Shown: positions 1 through 20,157 of the stretch, piece after piece
Layout of the letters: the number at the start of each line of letters is the position of its first letter
How positions within the stretch are numbered: position 1 is the stretch's first letter
Assembly: GCA_029555925.1 (NCBI GenBank)
Contig: JAKPQU010000131.1
Coordinates: forward strand, 1-20,403
Reading direction: 5' to 3'
DNA length: 20,403 nucleotides
DNA from: Bacillota bacterium
GTDB lineage: Bacteria > Eremiobacterota > SpSt-956 > JAKJGF01
Position numbers and translations under genes: made by a program
Notes under the pieces: model-generated
Database searches by the model: none
What the model was told of the DNA's origin: nothing
Seen by the model: the letters and a program-made list of their open reading frames with translations, nothing else

Positions 1-287
1 TCGTTTTCTTTATTCAAGAGCGATAACAGGTCATCTCCTTCAGATGCCTGAGAGAGAAGTGATTTTTTTAACTCTTCCTGCCCTTCGTTTTCTTTATTCA
101 AGAGCGATAACAGGTCATCTCCTTCAGATGCCTGAGAGAGAAGTGATTTTTTTAGCTCTTCCTGCCCTTCGTTTTCTTTATTCAAGAGCGATAACAGGTC
201 ATCTCCTTCAGATGCCTGAGAGAGAAGTGATTTTTTTAACTCTTCCTGCCCTTCGTTTTCTTTATTCAAGAGCGATAACAGGTCATC
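1..287 (-). repeat. 84-bp in-frame tandem repeat, three full copies plus a partial
   Basis: Copies start at 1, 85, 169 and 253 (the last only about 34 bp). The period is exactly 84 bp, or 28 codons in the minus-strand frame. Complete copies differ by a single base (aactc versus agctc near 155), which is synonymous (TTA/CTA Leu). The array may continue beyond position 1. Near-identity points to recent slippage or homogenisation. Confidence 0.95.
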
Positions 288-1580
288 CTGATTTTCTGTT
301 CCTGTTGTGTTTAGAAATGGCAAAAAATCTTTATCTATTTCTGAAAAAAGTATGGTTGCCTTTAATTGTTCTTTATCATATTTATCTTCCTGATGAAGCA
401 GATCGATGAGTGTATCTTTATCTTCGACAGGTATACCTTTTACCTCTTCTTTCTCCATAAGTTTTATTAATCCATTTTTATAAAGACAGTACATATTTTC
501 TACAAGTCTGTATAAAGGTATATCCATCTGTTCTGATAAATCATTCAATGTTCTCTTACCGTCAATATTCATCATAATAGCTAGGTCTTTTTTGCTGAAA
601 GCAAAATCTTCTTCATCGCCATGGGCATCACTGTCTTCATTTAAAGTAAATATTGCATCGGAATGTTTAAATTCTCCGGCGATTTCCATCAGTTTTATTA
701 TTTTTTCGGAAGGGCCTGATATAATTTCTTCGCATGTTATAGTTATCAATGTGTCAGGCTTATCCTGCCTTGTGAATTTGTAGAACGAGCAGTTTCCTGT
801 TTGTTGTGACATAGCTTCTGCTATGGCCAGATCGCCCGGCCAGAAAAGACTTTTCGCATCCATTATTATTTGATTTTCTATATAGATATCCGCCCTGTTC
901 CCGTTTGAAATTATATTTAAATTCCCTGTTACATTTGCGTCAATAATTAAATGAAATATATCTTTTAGCTTAAACCTGGATAAATCTACATTAAGTCCCG
1001 GAACATCTTTTAATGTCTGTAATAAAGTCATATCTGTAAGATATGTGATATAACCGTTTTTATGCAGATCTAACAAAATTTTTCCTGTTTTTAGGCCACC
1101 AAGGCCTGTGTTGCTGACGAGATCTTCATAGATAGGATATTTGTTTATATGGCTTATTATCATCCATTCTTCTCTGGAAAATGTAACAGGTTCTTGATTG
1201 TTTCTCTCTTTAAAAGGAACAATGGAAAAAGATGAATCATATAACGGAATAATCTCACTGAGTTCCTGTATATCCATCCATTCTCCGAAGGCTTCCTTTA
1301 AAATTTTATCTCCTTTACCTTCCGGAAATGTAACCTCTTCAAAACTAATACCTTCAATAAATTGGAAATTACCTGTCATGGCTAAAATTACTTTGAGAGC
1401 TTCTTCGCCTTTGTTCTGATCGTATATTGCATGAGTAATCTTTCCATCTTTCAGTATGATTTCTCCTTTTAACGCATGACCTGACAAAGTGATTTTTCCG
1501 CTTTTTTTCAAAGAATTTAAGAATTTCAGTATGAAAATTAATGAAAAACATTTCGTATTCCCCGATAGAGTTATATCCAT
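1..1580 (-). CDS. PATAN/DUF4388 double-module protein with C-terminal 28-residue repeats (partial)
   Basis: The reading frame opens at ATG 1580 and stays open to the window edge, giving 526 complete codons with the C-terminus missing. An AGGAGG sits 8 nt before the ATG and overlaps the stop of the upstream kinase gene, so the two are one operon. I see two copies of a PATAN-like (DUF4388) domain followed by a winged-helix-like segment: PATAN about 1-100, winged helix about 133-182, PATAN about 200-300, winged helix about 328-375. Typical PATAN features are the 'SGKITLSG' and 'GEIILKDGKITHA' strands. From about residue 430 the protein enters 28-residue repeats rich in Leu, Glu and Lys (DDLLSLLNKENE, then GQEELKKSLLSQAS). 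No membrane segment or signal peptide is visible. PATAN proteins are usually signalling adaptors; the partner is unknown, but the preceding kinase carries the same module. Domain calls are from pattern recognition, moderately sure. Confidence 0.8.
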   Translation of the reverse strand, partial: MDITLSGNTKCFSLIFILKFLNSLKKSGKITLSGHALKGEIILKDGKITHAIYDQNKGEEALKVILAMTGNFQFIEGISFEEVTFPEGKGDKILKEAFGEWMDIQELSEIIPLYDSSFSIVPFKERNNQEPVTFSREEWMIISHINKYPIYEDLVSNTGLGGLKTGKILLDLHKNGYITYLTDMTLLQTLKDVPGLNVDLSRFKLKDIFHLIIDANVTGNLNIISNGNRADIYIENQIIMDAKSLFWPGDLAIAEAMSQQTGNCSFYKFTRQDKPDTLITITCEEIISGPSEKIIKLMEIAGEFKHSDAIFTLNEDSDAHGDEEDFAFSKKDLAIMMNIDGKRTLNDLSEQMDIPLYRLVENMYCLYKNGLIKLMEKEEVKGIPVEDKDTLIDLLHQEDKYDKEQLKATILFSEIDKDFLPFLNTTGTENQDDLLSLLNKENEGQEELKKSLLSQASEGDDLLSLLNKENEGQEELKKSLLSQASEGDDLLSLLNKENEGQEELKKSLLSQASEGDDLLSLLNKEN

Positions 1581-1592
1581 TATTACATCCTC

Positions 1593-3251
1593 CTAATTTG
1601 TTTGTTTATTCAAATGCAGAAACCCTGATTTAACCAGATAATAAATTGCCTCTGCCACTTTTAATTGAGAAGAATTCAAACTGCAACAGAGTTTATTGAT
1701 AGTATTGGTACCTCTGGAAATCATGCTCAGTATTTTCATGTGATATTTCGTAAGTTTAATATCCTTCTCTCCTTTTAGAAAGTCAGTATTAACCTTCATA
1801 GTCATATCGGGAGACAGCAATGTAATAACATCATCCAGATAGAGGAGGTTATCCAGCCTGTTTTCTGCAAAATCTTCTATTAAATCCATCGGGACAGCAT
1901 TTGAATTAATGTTTTCGTCTGTATACGGATAAAAATCGAAAGTGCCTTCTGATAGTCTTAAAAATTTTATCAGTGCAGGTTCTCCTTCCCATCCGTTACA
2001 TGTCACATAAACCATCTTTTCTTTTTTTACCGTTATTTTCCCTTTTATTTTCGTAGAATTATAAGATATAGTACCTGTCAGATGTGATGATAATACAAAT
2101 TTAATCAATCTGAGAGGGCTATAGGAGGAAAAACTTCCGGGAAATGGATTGTGTTTTATAAGTTCATTTATTTTATCTTCAAGATTACGACATTCCTCCT
2201 GACTTTTTTTCAGCTCTTTCTTTAATATTTTATTTTCTTCCAGATACAATCGATTTATTTTCAATTCGTGACGTAATCTTTCGTTTTCCTCTGAGAGGTG
2301 CATATAATTTGTATGGGAGTTTAACGATGATTCCTGTTTTCCGAGTAAAGCCCCTTTCATTTCTTTGGCTGTATGAAATCTTTTTTCTGCTTCCAGTTCT
2401 AAAGAACGGGAAATAACCATGTCCAGATATGCCGGAATCGAAGGGATAGTTTCTTTTATGGGCTTATACGTAAATGGAACCGGCATAAGACCTGTAAGAA
2501 GGTGATATAAAGTTGCTCCAAGAGAATATAAGTCACTAGCAATAACAGGTTTACCCATATATTGTTCGGGGGCAATATAACCCATAGTGCCAATCATAGT
2601 TCTGGGAGCCCCCTGCTGTTCAATGGCACAGGCTATACCGAAATCTATTAAAAATAATTTTTTGTCATCAGATCTTATCATAATATTGGCAGGTTTGAGA
2701 TCCCTGTAAATTACAGGTGGATTACAACTGTGAAGATATTCCAGTATATTGCATATCTCTATTCCCCAGTTTATTACATCTTCATAGGGCAGCCCGGACT
2801 TACCTTTCTTTAATAAAGTATTGTCCAGATCCTCTCCGTCTATAAAGTCCATTACGAGATAATGCTGATTGTTATAACTGAAATAATCGCTGACTCGCGG
2901 AAGATTTTCATGGTGAAGCTCTGACAATAACTTTGCTTCACTTTTGAACCTCATAACCATATACTCCTCTTCCTGTTTTGATTTACTCCTGTGTGCCAGC
3001 AGTTCTTTAACGGCACAGATTTTAGAAAGATGTCTGTCTTCCGCCATGTAGATGGCTGCCATTCCACCGGATTTGATAAGGTTTTTTATAGTATAACGTC
3101 CAAGTAAAATGTCTCCTTCAGGCAATGGGCCATTACGCTCATTACTTCCGGGCATTAAAAGAGATTTTCCACAATCACAGCAAAATTTTGCTGTGTCTCC
3201 ATGTTCAGTACTGCAATTAGGACATGTTTTACCCGCTATACAGGTAGACAT
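1593..3251 (-). CDS. Zinc-ribbon Hanks-type Ser/Thr kinase fused to PATAN/winged-helix module
   Basis: This is a 552-residue cytoplasmic protein kinase. An N-terminal zinc ribbon is formed by C10/C13 and C24/C27. The kinase domain spans about 45-305: a Gly-rich loop reduced to KSGGMAAIY (60-68), ATP-anchoring Lys82 in AVKEL, helix-C Glu105, catalytic YRDLKPANI with Asp184 and Asn189, DFG at 203-205 and APE at 228-230. All catalytic residues are present, so it should be active. A Glu/Lys-rich coiled coil (about 318-366) leads to a PATAN/DUF4388 domain (370-470) and a winged-helix-like tail (495-545), the same pair of domains found twice in the next protein. The start is supported by AAGGAG 7 nt before ATG 3251. 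No membrane segment or PASTA repeats are seen. Its output and substrates are unknown; the neighbouring PATAN protein is the obvious candidate partner. Confidence 0.9.
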   Translation of the reverse strand: MSTCIAGKTCPNCSTEHGDTAKFCCDCGKSLLMPGSNERNGPLPEGDILLGRYTIKNLIKSGGMAAIYMAEDRHLSKICAVKELLAHRSKSKQEEEYMVMRFKSEAKLLSELHHENLPRVSDYFSYNNQHYLVMDFIDGEDLDNTLLKKGKSGLPYEDVINWGIEICNILEYLHSCNPPVIYRDLKPANIMIRSDDKKLFLIDFGIACAIEQQGAPRTMIGTMGYIAPEQYMGKPVIASDLYSLGATLYHLLTGLMPVPFTYKPIKETIPSIPAYLDMVISRSLELEAEKRFHTAKEMKGALLGKQESSLNSHTNYMHLSEENERLRHELKINRLYLEENKILKKELKKSQEECRNLEDKINELIKHNPFPGSFSSYSPLRLIKFVLSSHLTGTISYNSTKIKGKITVKKEKMVYVTCNGWEGEPALIKFLRLSEGTFDFYPYTDENINSNAVPMDLIEDFAENRLDNLLYLDDVITLLSPDMTMKVNTDFLKGEKDIKLTKYHMKILSMISRGTNTINKLCCSLNSSQLKVAEAIYYLVKSGFLHLNKQTN

Positions 3252-11428: not shown

Positions 11429-12829
11429 TTATACGTAAATATCTCTCTGTCCTTTTTTTATAGTCTCAAGCATATTCCTGACTTTTGCCCTCGTTCCTTC
11501 CTGCTCTATATCTTTTTCTATCATATTGTTTATGAGATTGAATCCGTCTTCTTTCAGAGACGGGTCGGCAAAATCATAGAGATATTCGGCGAAGGTTACT
11601 ATGGCATTGGGCAGGCAGTGTAATTTTATAAGCCCCGGTTTTGCAAGGTCCATAAAATCTTTCCCCACTCTTCCGAGTCTGTAACAGGCGGTGCAAAAAG
11701 ACGGTATGTAACCATGTTTTACCATATCTCTGATAACTTCTGCCATAGGTCTTGTATCCCCCAGGGCAAACTGTTCTTCTTCCGTATCTTTTGCACCGTA
11801 TTCGCCATGTTTATACCCGCCGGGGTTTGTCCTTGAACCGGCAGATATTTGAGATATACCCAGTTCAAAAGCATCTCTTCTCATAGCGGAATTCTCTCTT
11901 GTGCTCAGTATAATACCTGTATAGGGTACAGCAATTCTGAGGACTGCTATTATTTTCTTGAAATCTTCATCTGAAACTGCATATGGAGGATGGTAACTCA
12001 GCTCAGAGCCGAGAGCAGGTTCGATTCTGGGAATAGATATTGTATGAGGGCCGAGACCGAATTTTGCCTCCAGATGTTTTATATGGCTGAGAAGTGCCAG
12101 TATTTCATATCTCCAGTCATAAAGACCGAACAGAACACCTATTCCCACATCGTTAAATCCTGCTTCGAAGGCTCTGTCCATAGCTTCAAGCCTGTAACGA
12201 TAATTTGCCTTGGGCCCTCTTATATGAAGTTTTTTGTACGTTTCCTCATGATATGTTTCCTGGAATAACTGATATGTTCCTATATTACATTTATTTAATT
12301 CCCTGAATTCTTCTACTGACAGAGGTGCTATATTTACATTAATTCTTCTTATATTGCCCCTGTCGCTTTTTACTGAATAAATTGTTTCTATTGATTTGAA
12401 GATATAAGACAATCCTTCCTGTGTATAGGATTCTCCTGCTACGAGAAGAACTCTTTTATGTCCCTGGGAAAGAAGAATTTCTACTTCTTCTCTGATTTCA
12501 TCCTGATTAAGAGCTTTTCTTGTGAGATGAGCATTTGCCTTTCTGAATGCACAGTAAAGACATTCGTTATTACACAGATTTGATATGTAAAGAGGTGCAA
12601 AAAGAACGAGTCTGTTCCCGTAGATTTCTTTTTTTATCATTACTGCCGTTTTATAGATCTGCTCCAGTAGCTCCCTGTCCGTCACTTTTAAAAGGGTAAG
12701 TACATCATTATAACCTATTCCTTTTAATTCTCTGGCTCTGGCAAGAATCCCGGAAATTTTACCGGGTGAAATATCAATTTCTTTTTCAATTTCTTCAAAG
12801 ATTTTTTTATCGTCTATTATTTTATCCAT
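11429..12829 (-). CDS. hydG: [FeFe]-hydrogenase maturase HydG
   Basis: HydG is a radical SAM tyrosine lyase that releases CO and cyanide from tyrosine to build the Fe(CO)2CN units of the hydrogenase H-cluster. The 466-residue length is usual. The radical SAM cluster cysteines are C86, C90 and C93 (CNNECLYC, CX3CX2C). The HydG-specific C-terminal cluster motif CX2CX22C is present as C379, C382 and C405, and separates it from ThiH. ISAGSRTNPGGY and RLGRVGKDFMDLAKPG are also family-like. ATG 12829 has AAGGAA upstream. hydE lies 74 bp upstream on the same strand. hydF and the hydrogenase structural genes are not in the window. Confidence 0.96.
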   Translation of the reverse strand: MDKIIDDKKIFEEIEKEIDISPGKISGILARARELKGIGYNDVLTLLKVTDRELLEQIYKTAVMIKKEIYGNRLVLFAPLYISNLCNNECLYCAFRKANAHLTRKALNQDEIREEVEILLSQGHKRVLLVAGESYTQEGLSYIFKSIETIYSVKSDRGNIRRINVNIAPLSVEEFRELNKCNIGTYQLFQETYHEETYKKLHIRGPKANYRYRLEAMDRAFEAGFNDVGIGVLFGLYDWRYEILALLSHIKHLEAKFGLGPHTISIPRIEPALGSELSYHPPYAVSDEDFKKIIAVLRIAVPYTGIILSTRENSAMRRDAFELGISQISAGSRTNPGGYKHGEYGAKDTEEEQFALGDTRPMAEVIRDMVKHGYIPSFCTACYRLGRVGKDFMDLAKPGLIKLHCLPNAIVTFAEYLYDFADPSLKEDGFNLINNMIEKDIEQEGTRAKVRNMLETIKKGQRDIYV

Positions 12830-12868
12830 TAAATTTCCTTCTTTCTTAATTAGTAAAAGTGAAATGTG

Positions 12869-12915
12869 AAAAGTGAAAAGTAGTTAATGCCTTACTTTAT
12901 TCACTACTCACTTTT
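12869..12915. repeat. Dyad repeat between hydE and hydG
   Basis: aaaagtgaaaagtag (12869-12883) and ctactcactttt (12904-12915) form an imperfect inverted repeat with a 20-nt loop, the left arm extended by tandem gtgaaa units from 12860. The right arm covers the last codons and stop of hydE, so the repeat defines the end of that gene. It could form a hairpin in the hydE-hydG transcript. Confidence 0.6.
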
Positions 12916-13956
12916 TATACGCTTTTTAAAATGAACGGAATCGCCAGAGTCGTCAAAAGCTATTTCATCACCTGCACTTCTTACTCTCTTTTCTATGCAG
13001 GCTTTGCACTCACCTGCCATTTCTTCAAGGCATGGTTTATTATCATAGAGTTGATAGCTCTTTCTGTATTTTACCGGTGTAATATTGGGCATAATTACAT
13101 TGGCACCGCATTTAAGTCCCATTTCTCTTCCAAGAGGGTTTATTGCCTGAAGGGCAGTTGTTGAAGCAATATTTACATCCTGAAGATATATTCTGGTGAG
13201 GGCTATCATTTTCAGTGACAGTTGAAATCTCCTGTTTATTTCTTCATCTGTATTTAATGCGATAAGGGGGGCATCTTTATGAGGAAGATATGGCCCCATA
13301 CCTATCATATCAATATTCATATCTTTAAAGAACTGTATGTCTTCCATGAGATCTTCTTCCGTCTGTCCCGGAAGTCCTATCATTACTCCCGTACCTGCCT
13401 GATAGCCTGCTTTTTGTAAATTCCTGAGACATTCTGTTCTTTCTTTAAGGCTGTAACCTTCAGGATGAATCTCTCTGTAAATTTTTTCGCTCGTTGTTTC
13501 TATTCTGAGCAAATATCTGTTTGCTCCTGCGTCAAACCACCTTTTGTAGGTCTCATAAGTCTGTTCGCCTGCACAGAGGACAATTCTTAATTTCCCTTCA
13601 GTTTCTTTATTTATCCTTTTTACAACAGTACTGACAAAATCGATAAATTCACTGTCATTTCTTTCCCCTGATTGAAGCACGACAGAACCGTATTTGTTTT
13701 TCCATGCCCAGAGAGCACATTCTGTTATCTCTTCCTCTGTCATCATATATCTGTCCGGTTTACTATCCCGTCTTATACCGCAATAGTAACAGTTTCTGGC
13801 ACAGATATTACTGAATTCTATGAGGCCTCTCAAAAAAACCCTGTTCCCCGTATGTTTTAATTTTACTTCATAGGCCATCTTATAGAGTTTTTCCAGCTCT
13901 TTTTCATCTTTAACCTTAAGCCAGTAAAGTAAATCTTCTTTTTCAAATGTGTTCAT
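12904..13956 (-). CDS. hydE: [FeFe]-hydrogenase maturase HydE
   Basis: HydE is a radical SAM enzyme acting in synthesis of the dithiomethylamine bridge of the H-cluster, together with HydG and HydF. Counting from ATG 13956 the protein has 350 residues. The radical SAM cysteines are C52, C56 and C59 (CARNCYYC). A second C-terminal set, C309, C317 and C320 (CX7CX2C), matches the auxiliary cluster seen in some HydE proteins. The GERND, RIETTSEKIYREIHP and GTGVMIGLPGQTEEDL segments are typical. The frame extends to GTG 13971, but ATG 13956 has AAGGGA 6 nt upstream and is preferred. It is transcribed towards hydG and diverges from the membrane protein gene at 14136. Confidence 0.95.
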   Translation of the reverse strand: MNTFEKEDLLYWLKVKDEKELEKLYKMAYEVKLKHTGNRVFLRGLIEFSNICARNCYYCGIRRDSKPDRYMMTEEEITECALWAWKNKYGSVVLQSGERNDSEFIDFVSTVVKRINKETEGKLRIVLCAGEQTYETYKRWFDAGANRYLLRIETTSEKIYREIHPEGYSLKERTECLRNLQKAGYQAGTGVMIGLPGQTEEDLMEDIQFFKDMNIDMIGMGPYLPHKDAPLIALNTDEEINRRFQLSLKMIALTRIYLQDVNIASTTALQAINPLGREMGLKCGANVIMPNITPVKYRKSYQLYDNKPCLEEMAGECKACIEKRVRSAGDEIAFDDSGDSVHFKKRIKSE

Positions 13957-14067
13957 AAAATGTCCCTTCACCCTTCACACATCACTCTTCACCATGTAAA
14001 TATTCTTACGTTATCTCCCGTTACCTTCTAATTACCACAGATTTTTTATAATATGCGATATTTCATA

Positions 14068-16673: not shown

Positions 16674-16941
16674 GTCTGCCTGCCTGGTGTTCCGGAGAAA
16701 AAAATATCACGGCAGCACAGGTATATTTTATTGAATTATAGTTAGTTTCATAACTATCCATAAATAATGAGCTCGTAATGCGTAAAGCGTAATGCGCAGG
16801 GATTAAACCCGTCACGCGTCACGCGTTACCCGTCACGAAGACTTAAATTCTAATAAGTTATGAAATACACTATATAATGTAAAGTAGCATGATACAAGCT
16901 GTAACTGTTATAAACGTTCCAGTTTAGATTTTTTTCGGAGG
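16674..16941 (+). mobile_element. Miniature element A, copy 1, split by element B
   Basis: The left part (16674-16738) begins gtctgcctgcctg and the right part (16873-16941) ends tttttttcggagg. The right part matches 20326-20392 in inverted orientation with about one mismatch in 67 bp, and the left end matches the gtctgcctgcctg end of that second copy. The two copies together show a palindromic element of about 150 bp with ends of the form gtctgcctgcctg. The right terminus of this copy is lost after 16941. No coding capacity. Confidence 0.7.
16739..16872 (+). mobile_element. Miniature element B (MITE), 134 bp, inserted at TA
   Basis: The ends are tagttagtttcataact (left) and the inverse of tagtgtatttcataact (right), 14 of 17 positions matching. 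TA flanks both sides (16737-16738 and 16873-16874), as expected for mariner/IS630-type target duplication. The unoccupied target, gaattataatg, is visible in element A copy 2 (20388-20398, inverted). The interior has dyad gcgtaa/cgtcacg repeats around gggattaaaccc. It encodes no protein, so it would need a transposase from elsewhere. Confidence 0.75.
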
Positions 16942-17018
16942 CCGGTGGATTTTATAACGTTGATAGCATTTTGTATTACTTATGGTGGAAAAAGAATTTT
17001 ATCACAGAATATTGAGAG

Positions 17019-17070
17019 TGAAAAGTGAAAAGTGAGAAAAAATAGGATTTTACTTACTTTTCACTTTTCA
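17019..17070. terminator. Perfect 15-bp inverted repeat after the Ntn-hydrolase operon
   Basis: tgaaaagtgaaaagt (17019-17033) and acttttcacttttca (17056-17070) are exact inverted copies with a 22-nt loop. It begins 5 nt past the stop at 17076 on the transcribed side. A transcription stop is likely from position, though there is no clean T-run. Confidence 0.55.
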
Positions 17071-17075
17071 ACAAA

Positions 17076-18155
17076 TTATCTCAGGATAGGTAGTAGCCGT
17101 GCTTCTTCGGAAGCCCAGACATCTGCCGGATAGCCTCTTAAAAATCTGTGAAGAGCCTTTTTGTTTTCTACATGAGTCCATATTAAATCTGATGCCCAGT
17201 CAAGATCTTTACCTTCATAAAGAAGCCCTTCTACCATTTCTTTAATGATATTTTCTTTAATAAACCCGTATCTGCAGGCATGGATCATTTCAGAACAGAA
17301 TCTGGAACGATGATCGTTTATTTCTATAAGTCTTTCCTTTGCAGGTTTTTTACCATCAAAAAGAAATATATTGAAATATCCTCCAACACCTATATTATTT
17401 AACGATGCTTCATTGACGGCATCTATGGCCGCAATGGTTCCTTCTGTTCTGTCTATGGTATTCTTTCTTTCTTCCAGAGTGAGATGATTGAAAAATCTGC
17501 TGAAAGAAACATTCGCCATATCAGAGCCGGAACCCTGTGCAACAAAGCCTGAAGGAACCGGTTCATAAAAGGAATGACGCATGGAAAAAAGATATATCTG
17601 AAAACCTCCTGAAGGGTCATAACCTGCTATTATGCCGGCATTGCCAAACACTGCTCCTGCCTGATCTGTGCCGGAAGAGCCTGCTATTTCTTTCATGGCT
17701 TTTTCTATTATTTCTTTTGACTTTATTTTATATTCTCTGCCATCTTTTTTATATTCACCCTGAATAAAATCATCTGTAGTGAAACCGACCATGTTTTTAA
17801 GAGATTCATTTATATGGTCATGTTTTACCTCTGTTATCAGGTTGAATGTCAATTCTGCAATATCCGGTATGGTAAGAAATTTTTCCGGCGGTCCTCCTTC
17901 CAGTTCGACTTGTTTTTTATAAACCTCAAGAATCTTTTCTCTTATTTTGAAGCGTAATTCATCACCTATACTTGACGTTCCTGTATTCCCGTAGGCAGCC
18001 ACTATGCCGTATCTTTCTATTATTTCCTCCGGCACTACAGGGCGAATTTTATCTGCACCGAATATTTTCATTCTGTCATCATTCCAGTGACGCTGTTCAT
18101 CACATATCATAATACCTGAATAATCGTTAAAACGAATAGCATTTATCGAAGTCAT
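17076..18155 (-). CDS. HslV/proteasome-beta-like Ntn hydrolase, predicted catalytic subunit
   Basis: I read this 359-residue protein as an N-terminal nucleophile hydrolase related to HslV and proteasome beta subunits. It begins Met-Thr-Ser-Ile; removing Met exposes Thr2, as in HslV. SGIMICDEQR (13-22) matches the strand and turn holding Asp17 of proteasomes (here Asp19), and DKIRPV (35-40) supplies the equivalent of Lys33 (Lys36). IVAAYGNTGT (51-60) matches the GxAG region, AGYDPSGGFQIY (177-188) the 'agyD..gp.lY' strand and FVAQGSGSDMA (204-214) the GSG loop with Ser209. It is longer than the usual 180-230 residues because of an insertion (about 80-160, including GFTTDDF) and an alpha-rich extension after about 285. 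ATG 18155 overlaps the upstream paralogue by ATGA and has AAGGAG 11 nt upstream. No ATPase gene is adjacent. Family membership is inferred from motifs, not from a search. Confidence 0.75.
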   Translation of the reverse strand: MTSINAIRFNDYSGIMICDEQRHWNDDRMKIFGADKIRPVVPEEIIERYGIVAAYGNTGTSSIGDELRFKIREKILEVYKKQVELEGGPPEKFLTIPDIAELTFNLITEVKHDHINESLKNMVGFTTDDFIQGEYKKDGREYKIKSKEIIEKAMKEIAGSSGTDQAGAVFGNAGIIAGYDPSGGFQIYLFSMRHSFYEPVPSGFVAQGSGSDMANVSFSRFFNHLTLEERKNTIDRTEGTIAAIDAVNEASLNNIGVGGYFNIFLFDGKKPAKERLIEINDHRSRFCSEMIHACRYGFIKENIIKEMVEGLLYEGKDLDWASDLIWTHVENKKALHRFLRGYPADVWASEEARLLPILR

Positions 18156-19210
18156 ACGATAGAGTTCTCCTTTTTAAAAATATCATGGCTGCTGATGGTT
18201 ATTTTTTCCCTGTCCATTTTATAATTTCTCAAACATTTGTCCAGTTCAGACAGGTCAGAAGCTTTTTCGAAGAGCAGTTCTTCTGCTTTCTGCCATGGCA
18301 TTTGTTCAAATATAACAGACGTAATTATTTTTACAGTATCTTCTTTAGTAAGTAAATCCTCTCTGAAGGCTCTTACTGTTTCAATACATATGTGAGAAGA
18401 GCTGTCTGAAATTTCCTTCATATGTTCTCCTTCAGAGGAAAGAAGGACAAGCCGAATATTTCCTCCTATCTGGCTGTAATGTTCCCACGATTCGATTACT
18501 GCATTGAATACCGTTAATATTCCTTCTTCTTTGCCGAGGCCTTTTCTTCTTTTATCTACACTATATCTGTTAATAGTGTTTGCAAATTCACTTCCTCCTG
18601 CATATTTGCCTGCGCCAAGGCAGTCAAAACCGCAGGAATAAAAGGAGAGAACTCCATCCTGTTCCTTTATACAGTAGGCATGGAACCCGTCTGATGCAAC
18701 ACCGGCAATACAGGCTTCATTGGGTGGTATTACAAGAGTGGTATCCTGAGATTTTTCCTTCATATCTATGATATTTTCCACTCTTTTCCTGATTTTTTCC
18801 TGTTTTATCTGATAAACAGAACCGTTTTTTCTGTAAGATTCTGCCGTAAAATCATCTCTGTTAAAACCGAAAAGGAATTTGAGTCTGTTATTGATTCTGC
18901 GGCCATGAACCTCATGAAAAGCTTTAAGCACAATTCTTGCAAGCTCTTCTACCTTCAGCACTCCGTAATTGCCTGAAGAGAGATATTGTTCCATATATTT
19001 TTTAGTAATAAGATATACTTCATAATGAAAGGGAGGATAACCGGTACCTCCTGTGAATAATTCCACTCCTGACTTCCTGACCTCTTCCGGAACACATGAA
19101 TAAAGACTGTCTGAAAAGAAACTTTTACGATTCCGCAAAAACCAGCTCTCCTTATCAACACATATACAGCCGGAATTCTGGTTAAAGCGCATAACACTGA
19201 CTGTGGCCAA
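18152..19210 (-). CDS. HslV/proteasome-like paralogue, predicted non-catalytic subunit
   Basis: This 352-residue protein is a diverged paralogue of the next gene, colinear throughout: RFN at 8-10 in both, Asp19 in both, VPEE at 40-43, GGTG (54-57) in place of GNTG, ACIAGVASDGFHAYCI (166-181), CLGAGKYAGGSEFAN (197-211) and the shared insertion with FGFNRDDF (114-121) and a C-terminal helical part. It lacks two key residues: position 2 is Ala (Thr is at 3, so not terminal once Met is removed), and the lysine matching Lys36 is absent (SDSLYSC). It is thus probably an inactive structural subunit. The start is TTG 19210, with AAGGAGG 7 nt upstream across a T-run; the next in-frame ATG (19192) would remove the first strand. 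It is the first gene of a two-gene operon. Confidence 0.7.
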   Translation of the reverse strand: MATVSVMRFNQNSGCICVDKESWFLRNRKSFFSDSLYSCVPEEVRKSGVELFTGGTGYPPFHYEVYLITKKYMEQYLSSGNYGVLKVEELARIVLKAFHEVHGRRINNRLKFLFGFNRDDFTAESYRKNGSVYQIKQEKIRKRVENIIDMKEKSQDTTLVIPPNEACIAGVASDGFHAYCIKEQDGVLSFYSCGFDCLGAGKYAGGSEFANTINRYSVDKRRKGLGKEEGILTVFNAVIESWEHYSQIGGNIRLVLLSSEGEHMKEISDSSSHICIETVRAFREDLLTKEDTVKIITSVIFEQMPWQKAEELLFEKASDLSELDKCLRNYKMDREKITISSHDIFKKENSIV

Positions 19211-19253
19211 AAAAAACCCTCCTTAATTTTATAATTTATATTGAGATTGCAAT

Positions 19254-19422: not shown

Positions 19423-19492
19423 AGTGAATAGTGAGCAGTGATGGTTTAAGTTCACTACTCACTATTCACTACTCACTATTCACTACTCATTA
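19423..19492. repeat. 14-bp tandem repeats with inverted partner
   Basis: ttcactactcacta is repeated at 19451, 19465 and, imperfectly, 19479. The stretch 19423-19441 (agtgaatagtgagcagtga) is the inverse of 19452-19470 with one mismatch. The array ends right at the stop of the TPR gene (19493), so it would fold into a hairpin at the end of that message. Confidence 0.75.
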
Positions 19493-20128
19493 TTAATATC
19501 TTTTTCTTCCGAAAAAATCTATAGATCTGTCTTTCTTTATTTTTGCTACCTGTTGTTCCCCTATTTTTCTGTCGCAGTAGCCTTTATAAACGAACCATAC
19601 AATAAATAATATTATGAAAGAAACTATTACAAAAACCCATAACTTAATATCTTCTGCCATGGTTCTGACAGGTATTTCTGCTGTGAATTTATATTTTCTT
19701 GATAATTCCTCTATATCCTTTATATAAGGAGATTTATTATCAAGCTTTATCGATTGACTGAAAGCTTCCTGTGCTTCTTTGATTTTATCTGCCTGTAAAT
19801 AGGCAAATCCGAGAGCAAAAAGCATTACAGGTTTGTTTTTGTTATAAAACATCATTCTATCGGTTTTGTCTTTATAAAAGGCAATACATTGATCCATTTC
19901 TACAGGTGTCTTTTTACTTAAATATGTACAGCTTTTAACATATATCTTATGGGCTTCCAGCAGGTTTGCATCCTGTTTAATTATTTCAAAAGCCTCCTGT
20001 TTTGCTTTTGTATATCTTTTATTATCATAATCATCCTGGGCCTTTCTCATGAGCTGACCGACAGTATCGGCGCAGGCAACGGCATATACTATTACCAGAA
20101 AAAGCAGCAAGATTTTCATCTTATTCAT
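19493..20128 (-). CDS. TPR protein with N-terminal signal and C-terminal membrane helix
   Basis: This is a 211-residue protein of unknown role, numbered from ATG 20128. The N-terminus MNKMKILLLFLVIVYAVACADT is a signal-peptide-like segment; a Cys after AVA could be a lipobox, though Ala at -3 is not typical. TPR-like helical repeats lie at about 25-60 and 100-133 (ALGFAYLQADKIKEAQEAF is the clearest). A membrane helix follows at about 161-182, then a short basic tail ending FFGRKRY. This suggests an exported TPR domain held at the inner membrane with a cytoplasmic tail. An earlier TTG (20143) is in frame, but GGAG 9 nt before ATG 20128 favours the latter. It precedes the Ntn-hydrolase pair by about 280 bp on the same strand. 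Confidence 0.78.
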   Translation of the reverse strand: MNKMKILLLFLVIVYAVACADTVGQLMRKAQDDYDNKRYTKAKQEAFEIIKQDANLLEAHKIYVKSCTYLSKKTPVEMDQCIAFYKDKTDRMMFYNKNKPVMLFALGFAYLQADKIKEAQEAFSQSIKLDNKSPYIKDIEELSRKYKFTAEIPVRTMAEDIKLWVFVIVSFIILFIVWFVYKGYCDRKIGEQQVAKIKKDRSIDFFGRKRY

Positions 20129-20157
20129 AAAAATCATCTCCAATTCTATTTATTATA

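What the first reader, a model, noticed from the sequence alone, without database searches (positions are those of the whole stretch)
17076..19210. Two-gene proteasome/HslV-like system with an unusual domain plan
Seen: two colinear paralogues overlapping by ATGA, both with an HslV-like N-terminal strand, the conserved Asp19, a GSG-like loop in one and a glycine-rich loop in the other, and lengths of 352-359 residues. Known: HslV and proteasome beta subunits are about 180-230 residues and use Thr1, Asp17 and Lys33. Inference: this is a distinct, larger bacterial proteasome-like family working as a heteromer. It is not the usual HslV (no hslU here), Anbu, or the actinobacterial 20S pair as far as I can judge.
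Basis: partly seen in the sequence, partly recalled or inferred. Interest (0 to 1): 0.8.

Follow-up and report, generated by a model that had tools for sequence, protein, structure and literature searches.

The report
Paired active/inactive proteasome-like bacterial genes
Two overlapping genes from an uncultured bacterium encode distant cousins of the proteasome's core subunits, one that kept the protein-cutting site and one that lost it, and relatives of the two usually sit side by side, which suggests that bacteria built a two-part proteasome-like enzyme a second time.

Summary
A keeps Thr1, Asp17, Lys33 and a Ser129-like residue (92 of 92 rows each); B lacks Thr1 and Lys33 (0 of 37). A and B separate on one branch (support 100). 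In nine genomes 25 of 28 A genes have B directly upstream, in up to four pairs per genome. A and B distances correlate (Mantel r 0.77). Both share a folded segment of about 50 residues at the pore-loop site and C-terminal helices.
Best reading: an uncharacterised two-subunit proteasome-like hydrolase, A catalytic, B structural or regulatory, split separately from 20S alpha/beta. A physical complex and protease activity are not shown. Whether A falls inside the published PMI-4 cluster (Fuchs 2021) could not be tested; that paper reports no suggestive gene context.

The parts
17076..18155 (-). Gene A: catalytic proteasome-like subunit, 359 aa
18152..19210 (-). Gene B: non-catalytic proteasome-like paralogue, 352 aa, TTG start
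18152..18155 (-). ATGA overlap of B stop and A start
   Evidence: the same -4 spacing in 11 of 21 pairs
18150..18152 (-). Codon of A Thr2 (= Thr1 after Met removal)
   Evidence: T in 92 of 92 A rows, 0 of 37 B rows; nearly invariant (90% or more) in the 121-row A1
18099..18101 (-). Codon of A Asp19 (= Asp17)
   Evidence: D in 92 of 92 A and 37 of 37 B rows
18048..18050 (-). Codon of A Lys36 (= Lys33)
   Evidence: K in 92 of 92 A rows, 0 of 37 B rows; invariant in A1, 121 rows
17529..17531 (-). Codon of A Ser209 (GSG loop, Ser129-like; equivalence recalled)
   Evidence: S in 92 of 92 A rows, 4 of 37 B rows
17640..17786 (-). A residues 124-172: segment between H2 and the next core strand (pore-loop site), with two helices and a beta hairpin
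   Evidence: Secondary structure of the model; the same elements in B residues 115-164
18719..18868 (-). B residues 115-164: the equivalent segment in B
   Evidence: A and B profiles align through it
17079..17312 (-). A residues 282-359: C-terminal helices with conserved LRGY motif
   Evidence: (R340 invariant; L339, G341, Y342 nearly so); the aligned range ends by residue 299 in 33 of the 50 rows listed
19218..19224 (-). Shine-Dalgarno-like AAGGAGG before B
   Evidence: Sequence
18167..18172 (-). Shine-Dalgarno-like AAGGAG before A, inside B
   Evidence: Sequence
19493..20143 (-). Upstream TPR protein, possible operon member in this lineage
   Evidence: 40% identical over 202 aa to the gene just upstream of B in L001; TPR_2 E 1.7e-5, just below cut-off; gap to B is 282 bp here, 12 bp in L001

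Best explanation
A and B are the two subunits of a proteasome-like N-terminal-nucleophile hydrolase. Shown by sequence and predicted structure: both have the proteasome beta fold; A keeps the catalytic residues; B has lost them but keeps the fold and looks constrained; the two genes form an old, co-inherited pair. Inferred: methionine aminopeptidase removes Met1 of A (no propeptide), exposing Thr1, which Lys33/Asp17 activate to attack peptide (or other amide) bonds. B co-assembles with A and sets ring geometry, gating or docking, much as inactive alpha subunits serve beta subunits in the 20S proteasome. The shared pore-loop segment and C-terminal helices would control access or docking. The duplication that gave A and B is separate from the one that gave 20S alpha and beta. 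Split of confidence: fold 0.98; A catalytic and B not 0.9; physical hetero-complex 0.7; peptide-bond hydrolysis as the main activity 0.6.
For: Fold: A; B. Active-site split. Pairing: B directly upstream of A on the same strand for 25 of 28 A matches in nine genomes; a B-profile search of the same nine found no B away from an A, except a fragment cut by a contig end. Also in the window and in L001 and L002 (these lie in two of the nine genomes). ATGA-type overlap in 11 of 21 pairs; A and B distances correlate, Mantel r 0.77, 0 of 20000 permutations (some pairs are orthologues). One branch, support 100, parts 92 A from 37 B rows. A and B align end to end (E 1.8e-70), while against one 20S beta/alpha tandem (G154) A gives E 0.0022 and 0.058 and B 0.17 and 0.36, and HslV nothing significant. 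Similar dN/dS for both. Some pairs adjoin peptidase genes: M29 after A in L055, M23 overlapping B in L063 and L065, M20 before B in L056, L067 and L069.
Against: No complex, assembly state or activity was measured or modelled. Two of 28 A genes stand alone and one is a second tandem A, so B may not be essential (in one of the two a transposase-domain gene, PF05598, lies upstream). No AAA+ unfoldase was seen to recur beside the pairs, but not all neighbours were scanned; one MoxR-like AAA gene lies about 4 kb from A in L056. Sequence searches find far fewer B than A (10 and 15, which was capped, against 195): fast evolution or real absence. The 20S comparison rests on single sequences from one genome. 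Of the characterised relatives, YbAnbu showed no peptidase or amidase activity although it has the triad (PMC6376114, passage), and connectase is a ligase (PMC8665760). The pore-loop segment could block ring closure, as Fuchs et al. [quoted passage not shown]
Confidence: 0.7

Rival explanations
1. A works alone (homo-oligomer, as HslV, BPH or Anbu do) and B is a dedicated assembly chaperone, inhibitor or substrate adaptor that shares the fold but is not part of the mature particle.
For: Solitary A genes exist (G001:C281:4981, G013:C42:39166); B diverges somewhat faster than A (median distance ratio 1.21).
Against: The B model keeps H1-H4, the pore-loop segment and the C-terminal helices, and dN/dS is about the same as for A.
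Confidence: 0.15
2. The pair is not a general protease but an amide-bond enzyme of a peptide or tagging pathway (cleaving, or ligating as connectase does), partnered by ATP-grasp peptide ligases, as proposed for the Anbu operon.
For: ATP-grasp-like genes lie within 7 kb of 4 of 28 A genes, 0.49 expected, Poisson P 0.0016; in G154 (L067) and G155 (L069) the order M20 peptidase - B - A - ATP-grasp is compact. The Anbu operon has an ATP-grasp gene (PMC5666114, PMC6376114, passages).
Against: No ATP-grasp in the window; of the 28 A genes, 24 have none within 7 kb (many contigs are short); the four cases include orthologues, so about two independent ones; 41 such matches exist in 8 of 9 genomes and only a few lie near pairs. 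The Pfam ATP-grasp match is below the curated cut-off for L067, L069:7065-8465 and L062, above it for L069:15059-16426, a 35% identical relative.
Confidence: 0.15
3. A is simply a member of an already described proteasome-like cluster (PMI-4, less likely PMI-3 or PHI), with B an inactive copy that was overlooked.
For: Those clusters have insertions after H1/H2, and PMI-3/PMI-4 also between H3 and H4 (PMC8665760, text); A has the first and a short extra helix at the second. PMI-4 is large and widespread (Table 1).
Against: PMI-4 is listed in phages; no A relative was found by tblastn in 50,697 phage or 72,556 plasmid records, nor in IMG/VR contigs by pattern scan. The text reports no contexts or co-occurrence suggestive of a function, and does not contain words beginning operon, paralog or heteromer. 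None of this excludes membership.
Confidence: 0.35

Closest known systems
20S proteasome beta and alpha subunits
   Same: Beta fold with the Thr1/Asp17/Lys33 site in one subunit and an inactive paralogue as partner; best structural matches.
   Different: A has no propeptide; B has no N-terminal helical extension (it starts level with Thr1); both carry the pore-loop segment and C-terminal helices; sequence similarity barely detectable; A and B are far closer to each other.
HslV
   Same: Bacterial, starts at a Thr, triad and GSG loop.
   Different: A is about twice as long, with the pore-loop segment and extension; no HslU gene among the window genes scanned; profile similarity not significant; genomes with the pair can also have HslV (G001, G002, G013, G156, named by recalled motif).
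Anbu
   Same: No propeptide, a C-terminal helix, ATP-grasp neighbours in some genomes; B's Foldseek list includes Y. bercovieri Anbu chains (5nyw, E 5.5e-8).
   Different: No ATP-grasp, alpha-E or transglutaminase among the window genes scanned; Anbu is not among the homologues said to have a longer pore-loop insertion (PMC8665760 text); sequence not compared directly.
PMI-4 / PMI-3 / PHI clusters (Fuchs, Alva and Lupas 2021)
   Same: Insertion after H1/H2, and for PMI-3/4 one between H3 and H4.
   Different: No paired inactive subunit is mentioned in the text read; sequences could not be compared.
ClpP/ClpR of cyanobacteria and plastids (recalled)
   Same: Barrel protease with active and inactive paralogues.
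   Different: Unrelated fold (serine protease).

Membership tests
Proteasome-like family in the broad sense (Ntn, Fuchs 2021) | Proteasome beta core fold | tested here: met
   A and B models:
Proteasome-like family in the broad sense (Ntn, Fuchs 2021) | Thr1/Ser1, Asp17, Lys33 | tested here: met
   Met by A (92 of 92 rows each); not met by B, which keeps only Asp17 (Ser at position 1 in 6 of 37, Lys33 in 0 of 37)
20S proteasome | Alpha subunit with N-terminal helical extension | tested here: not met
   B begins level with A's Met-Thr; the model starts with a strand
20S proteasome | A nearer to 20S beta and B nearer to 20S alpha than A and B are to each other | tested here: not met
   A-B E 1.8e-70 over 345 columns; A-beta 0.0022, A-alpha 0.058, B-beta 0.17, B-alpha 0.36, with one 20S tandem only; no rooted tree was built
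20S proteasome | Four stacked heptameric rings | not testable with these tools
   No complex prediction available
HslV | Sequence similarity to HslV | tested here: not met
   PF00227 below cut-off; hhalign with 18 HslV sequences E 0.26 (A) and 0.11 (B). Against this: phrog_1040, an HslV-type model, hits A at E 0.00094
HslV | Adjacent hslU | tested here: not met
   No HslU among the window genes scanned
Anbu | Operon with ATP-grasp, alpha-E and transglutaminase | tested here: not met
   Window genes scanned: none; some relatives have ATP-grasp-like neighbours
Anbu | Sequence similarity to Anbu | not tested
   No Anbu profile was built; Anbu chains appear only as structural matches of B
PMI-4 / PMI-3 | Insertion after H1/H2 (pore-loop site) | tested here: met
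   A residues 124-172, B 115-164
PMI-4 / PMI-3 | Insertion between H3 and H4 | tested here: inconclusive
   Only a short extra helix (A 227-232) in a 12-residue linker
PMI-4 / PMI-3 | Sequence clusters with HDY66466.1 or OGZ26396.1 | not testable with these tools
   No tool here fetches these records; supplement look-ups were capped at 0; figures are not held

The most novel reading that the evidence does not exclude
Bacteria invented the two-part proteasome twice: A/B is a second catalytic plus inactive proteasome-type heteromer, born from its own gene duplication, amplified into several co-evolving pairs per genome in uncultured phyla, with a folded pore-loop segment that gives it its own gate or substrate docking.
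Probability: 0.5. Interest if true: 0.85.

Novelty: new variant of a known kind. Interest (0 to 1): 0.62.

Why it matters
How an inactive proteasome subunit arises and becomes an obligate partner is known from the 20S lineage. If A/B is a separate case, that step can be studied as a repeat of evolution, in a system of just two genes with up to four pairs per genome. It also points to a family that the public libraries hardly see: Pfam and PHROGs give only weak proteasome/HslV hits to A (E about 0.001) and none to B, NCBIfam and PADLOC none of that kind, although 195 homologues of A were found in a database clustered at 90% identity. Two-gene operons suit simple co-expression and cryo-EM.

Tried and rejected
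Serine/threonine kinases as partners: kinases lie near pairs in G001 (L052, L053), G013 (L058) and G002 (L002), but these genomes hold 147, 71 and 74 kinase matches, so no enrichment is claimed. A defence role: no PADLOC match at E<=0.01 for six proteins. Phage or plasmid origin: no match. phrog_1040 as a proxy for PMI-4: it rings ordinary HslV (130 of 147 genomes of G001's phylum and 9 of 14 controls), so useless for that test. A phage HslV search for PMI-4 members gave 13 records, all HslV-like. Peptidase neighbours (M20, M23, M29, SppA): no baseline was computed, so only suggestive. SppA in the window starts 590 bp downstream of A, not evidently one operon. Rows dropped: one truncated B (L069:19030-19500) from the tree and site counts; 53 of the 120 listed A proteins were left out of the tree and site table to thin it (67 of 120, plus 25 from the window and loci, = 92; 5 of 129 rows duplicate others). 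The G153:C355 fragment was left out of the 28. BFVD gave 26 viral matches at E<=0.001, weaker than the PDB's. The 50 VIA rows shown for A list no HslV, BPH, Anbu or connectase; that excludes nothing. Rfam found nothing in the window.

Full report
What is there. The window (35.6% G+C) has two overlapping minus-strand genes, B (18152-19210) then A (17076-18155) in transcription order. The overlap is ATGA. A and B are paralogues along their whole length (27%, E 3e-31; profiles E 1.8e-70 over 345 columns). By sequence they are nearly invisible as proteasome relatives: PF00227 hits A at E 0.001, below its cut-off, and B not at all; 4 of 121 A members reach E 0.01; phrog_1040 (HslV family) hits A at E 0.00094. 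Profile searches of the PDB sequences give proteasome subunits as best matches, but at E 0.049 (A; all 15 rows are proteasome) and 0.011 (B; 11 of 18 rows).

Division of labour. In 92 A rows and 37 B rows: position Thr1 is T in 92/92 A and 0/37 B (Ala 27, Ser 6, Gly 4); Asp17 is D in all of both; Lys33 is K in 92/92 A and 0/37 B; the GSG serine is S in 92/92 A and 4/37 B. The larger A alignment has D19 and K36 invariant in 121 rows and T2 in 90% or more. So A looks catalytic and B does not. B does not look like a decaying gene: dN/dS is 0.116 for B and 0.121 for A against L001 (synonymous sites near saturation; a second comparison was saturated).

A conserved pair. L001 has TPR-B-A, as the window does, and L002, a distant MAG, has B-A. 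In nine genomes, 28 A matches were counted; 25 have B directly upstream on the same strand. The exceptions are two solitary A genes and one second tandem A. A search with the B profile found no B elsewhere in these nine, apart from a contig-end fragment in G153. Genomes carry one to four pairs. Four of the ten B proteins share their longest-contig length with an A protein (5530, 37771, 5398, 70918), which suggests the same contigs, and one such couple bears neighbouring locus tags (PL110_15800/15805, Candidatus Eremiobacteraeota). The tree separates A from B by one branch, support 100, and several A and B subclades mirror each other; over 21 pairs the Mantel r is 0.77 with 0 of 20000 permutations reaching it (several pairs are orthologues, so not independent). 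Against a 20S beta/alpha tandem from G154 the E-values are A 0.0022 and 0.058, B 0.17 and 0.36, and HslV is not significant. A and B also share the pore-loop segment and C-terminal helices. This points to a duplication separate from 20S alpha/beta; single 20S sequences were used and no full rooted tree was made.

Distribution. 7 of 8 genomes searched in G002's phylum and 2 of 149 in G001's phylum have the family. Names given by sources include Eremiobacteraeota, Planctomycetota, Schekmanbacteria and CSSED10-310. No phage, plasmid or viral-contig match. Five of nine genomes also have PF00227 proteins (one HslV-like in four, a beta/alpha tandem in G154); in the other four none was found at E<=0.01, though these are draft genomes. 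So the pair neither requires nor excludes HslV.

Neighbourhood. Some pairs lie beside peptidases: M20 before B in L056, L067 and L069; M23 overlapping B in L063 and L065; M29 after A in L055, with TldD-like genes further upstream; SppA downstream in the window. No baseline was computed. ATP-grasp-like genes lie within 7 kb of 4 of 28 A genes against 0.49 expected; about two of the four are independent. One compact order is M20-B-A-ATP-grasp (L067 and L069). The Anbu operon also has an ATP-grasp gene (PMC5666114 and PMC6376114, passages). Kinases occur near some pairs but are frequent everywhere. No AAA+ partner was seen to recur, but only part of the neighbours was scanned.

What it compares with. 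Fuchs, Alva and Lupas 2021 (PMC8665760; parts 1 to 5 of 6 of the held text read, figures and supplement not) describe 22 further proteasome-like clusters; [quoted passage not shown] They report no contexts or co-occurrence suggestive of function. Searches for related work listed, by title and opening of abstract, nothing on a paired inactive bacterial subunit; for PMC13022661 and the BPH paper PMC5777263 only passages were seen.

Verdict. The fold and the active/inactive split are solid; the hetero-complex is likely; the biochemical role is inferred. It is a new variant of a known kind. The main threat to novelty is that A may belong to PMI-4; the paired, apparently independently evolved inactive subunit is the part worth testing.

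Noticed in passing
window 3-1580: DUF4388 protein with a near-perfect 84-bp tandem repeat at its 3' end (3.4 copies, 99% match, window 1-287), next to a serine/threonine kinase (1593-3251).
   Followed up: no
window 11429-13971: HydG and HydE, the [FeFe]-hydrogenase maturases, side by side (TIGR03955, TIGR03956 above cut-off).
   Followed up: no
L067 7029-11878 and L069 7062-11938: Compact order M20 peptidase - B - A - ATP-grasp in two genomes, with a second ATP-grasp-like fragment beyond M20 in L067; reminiscent of the Anbu/ATP-grasp link.
   Followed up: partly
L061, L064, L066, L068, L091: One pair type is followed by a polyprenyl synthetase gene in these five loci (PF00348 in L061 and L068, the others 50-71% identical to the L061 protein).
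   Followed up: partly
L086: G154 carries a 20S-type beta/alpha tandem; the other genomes of that phylum searched for PF00227 (six of them) showed no such tandem.
   Followed up: partly
L056 3492-4442: MoxR-like AAA gene (PF07726) about 4 kb downstream of an A gene, with genes on the other strand between.
   Followed up: no
window 16801-17070 and 19430-19500: Short direct repeats in the intergenic DNA flanking the pair (cacgcgt-like and TTCACTACTCACTA).
   Followed up: no
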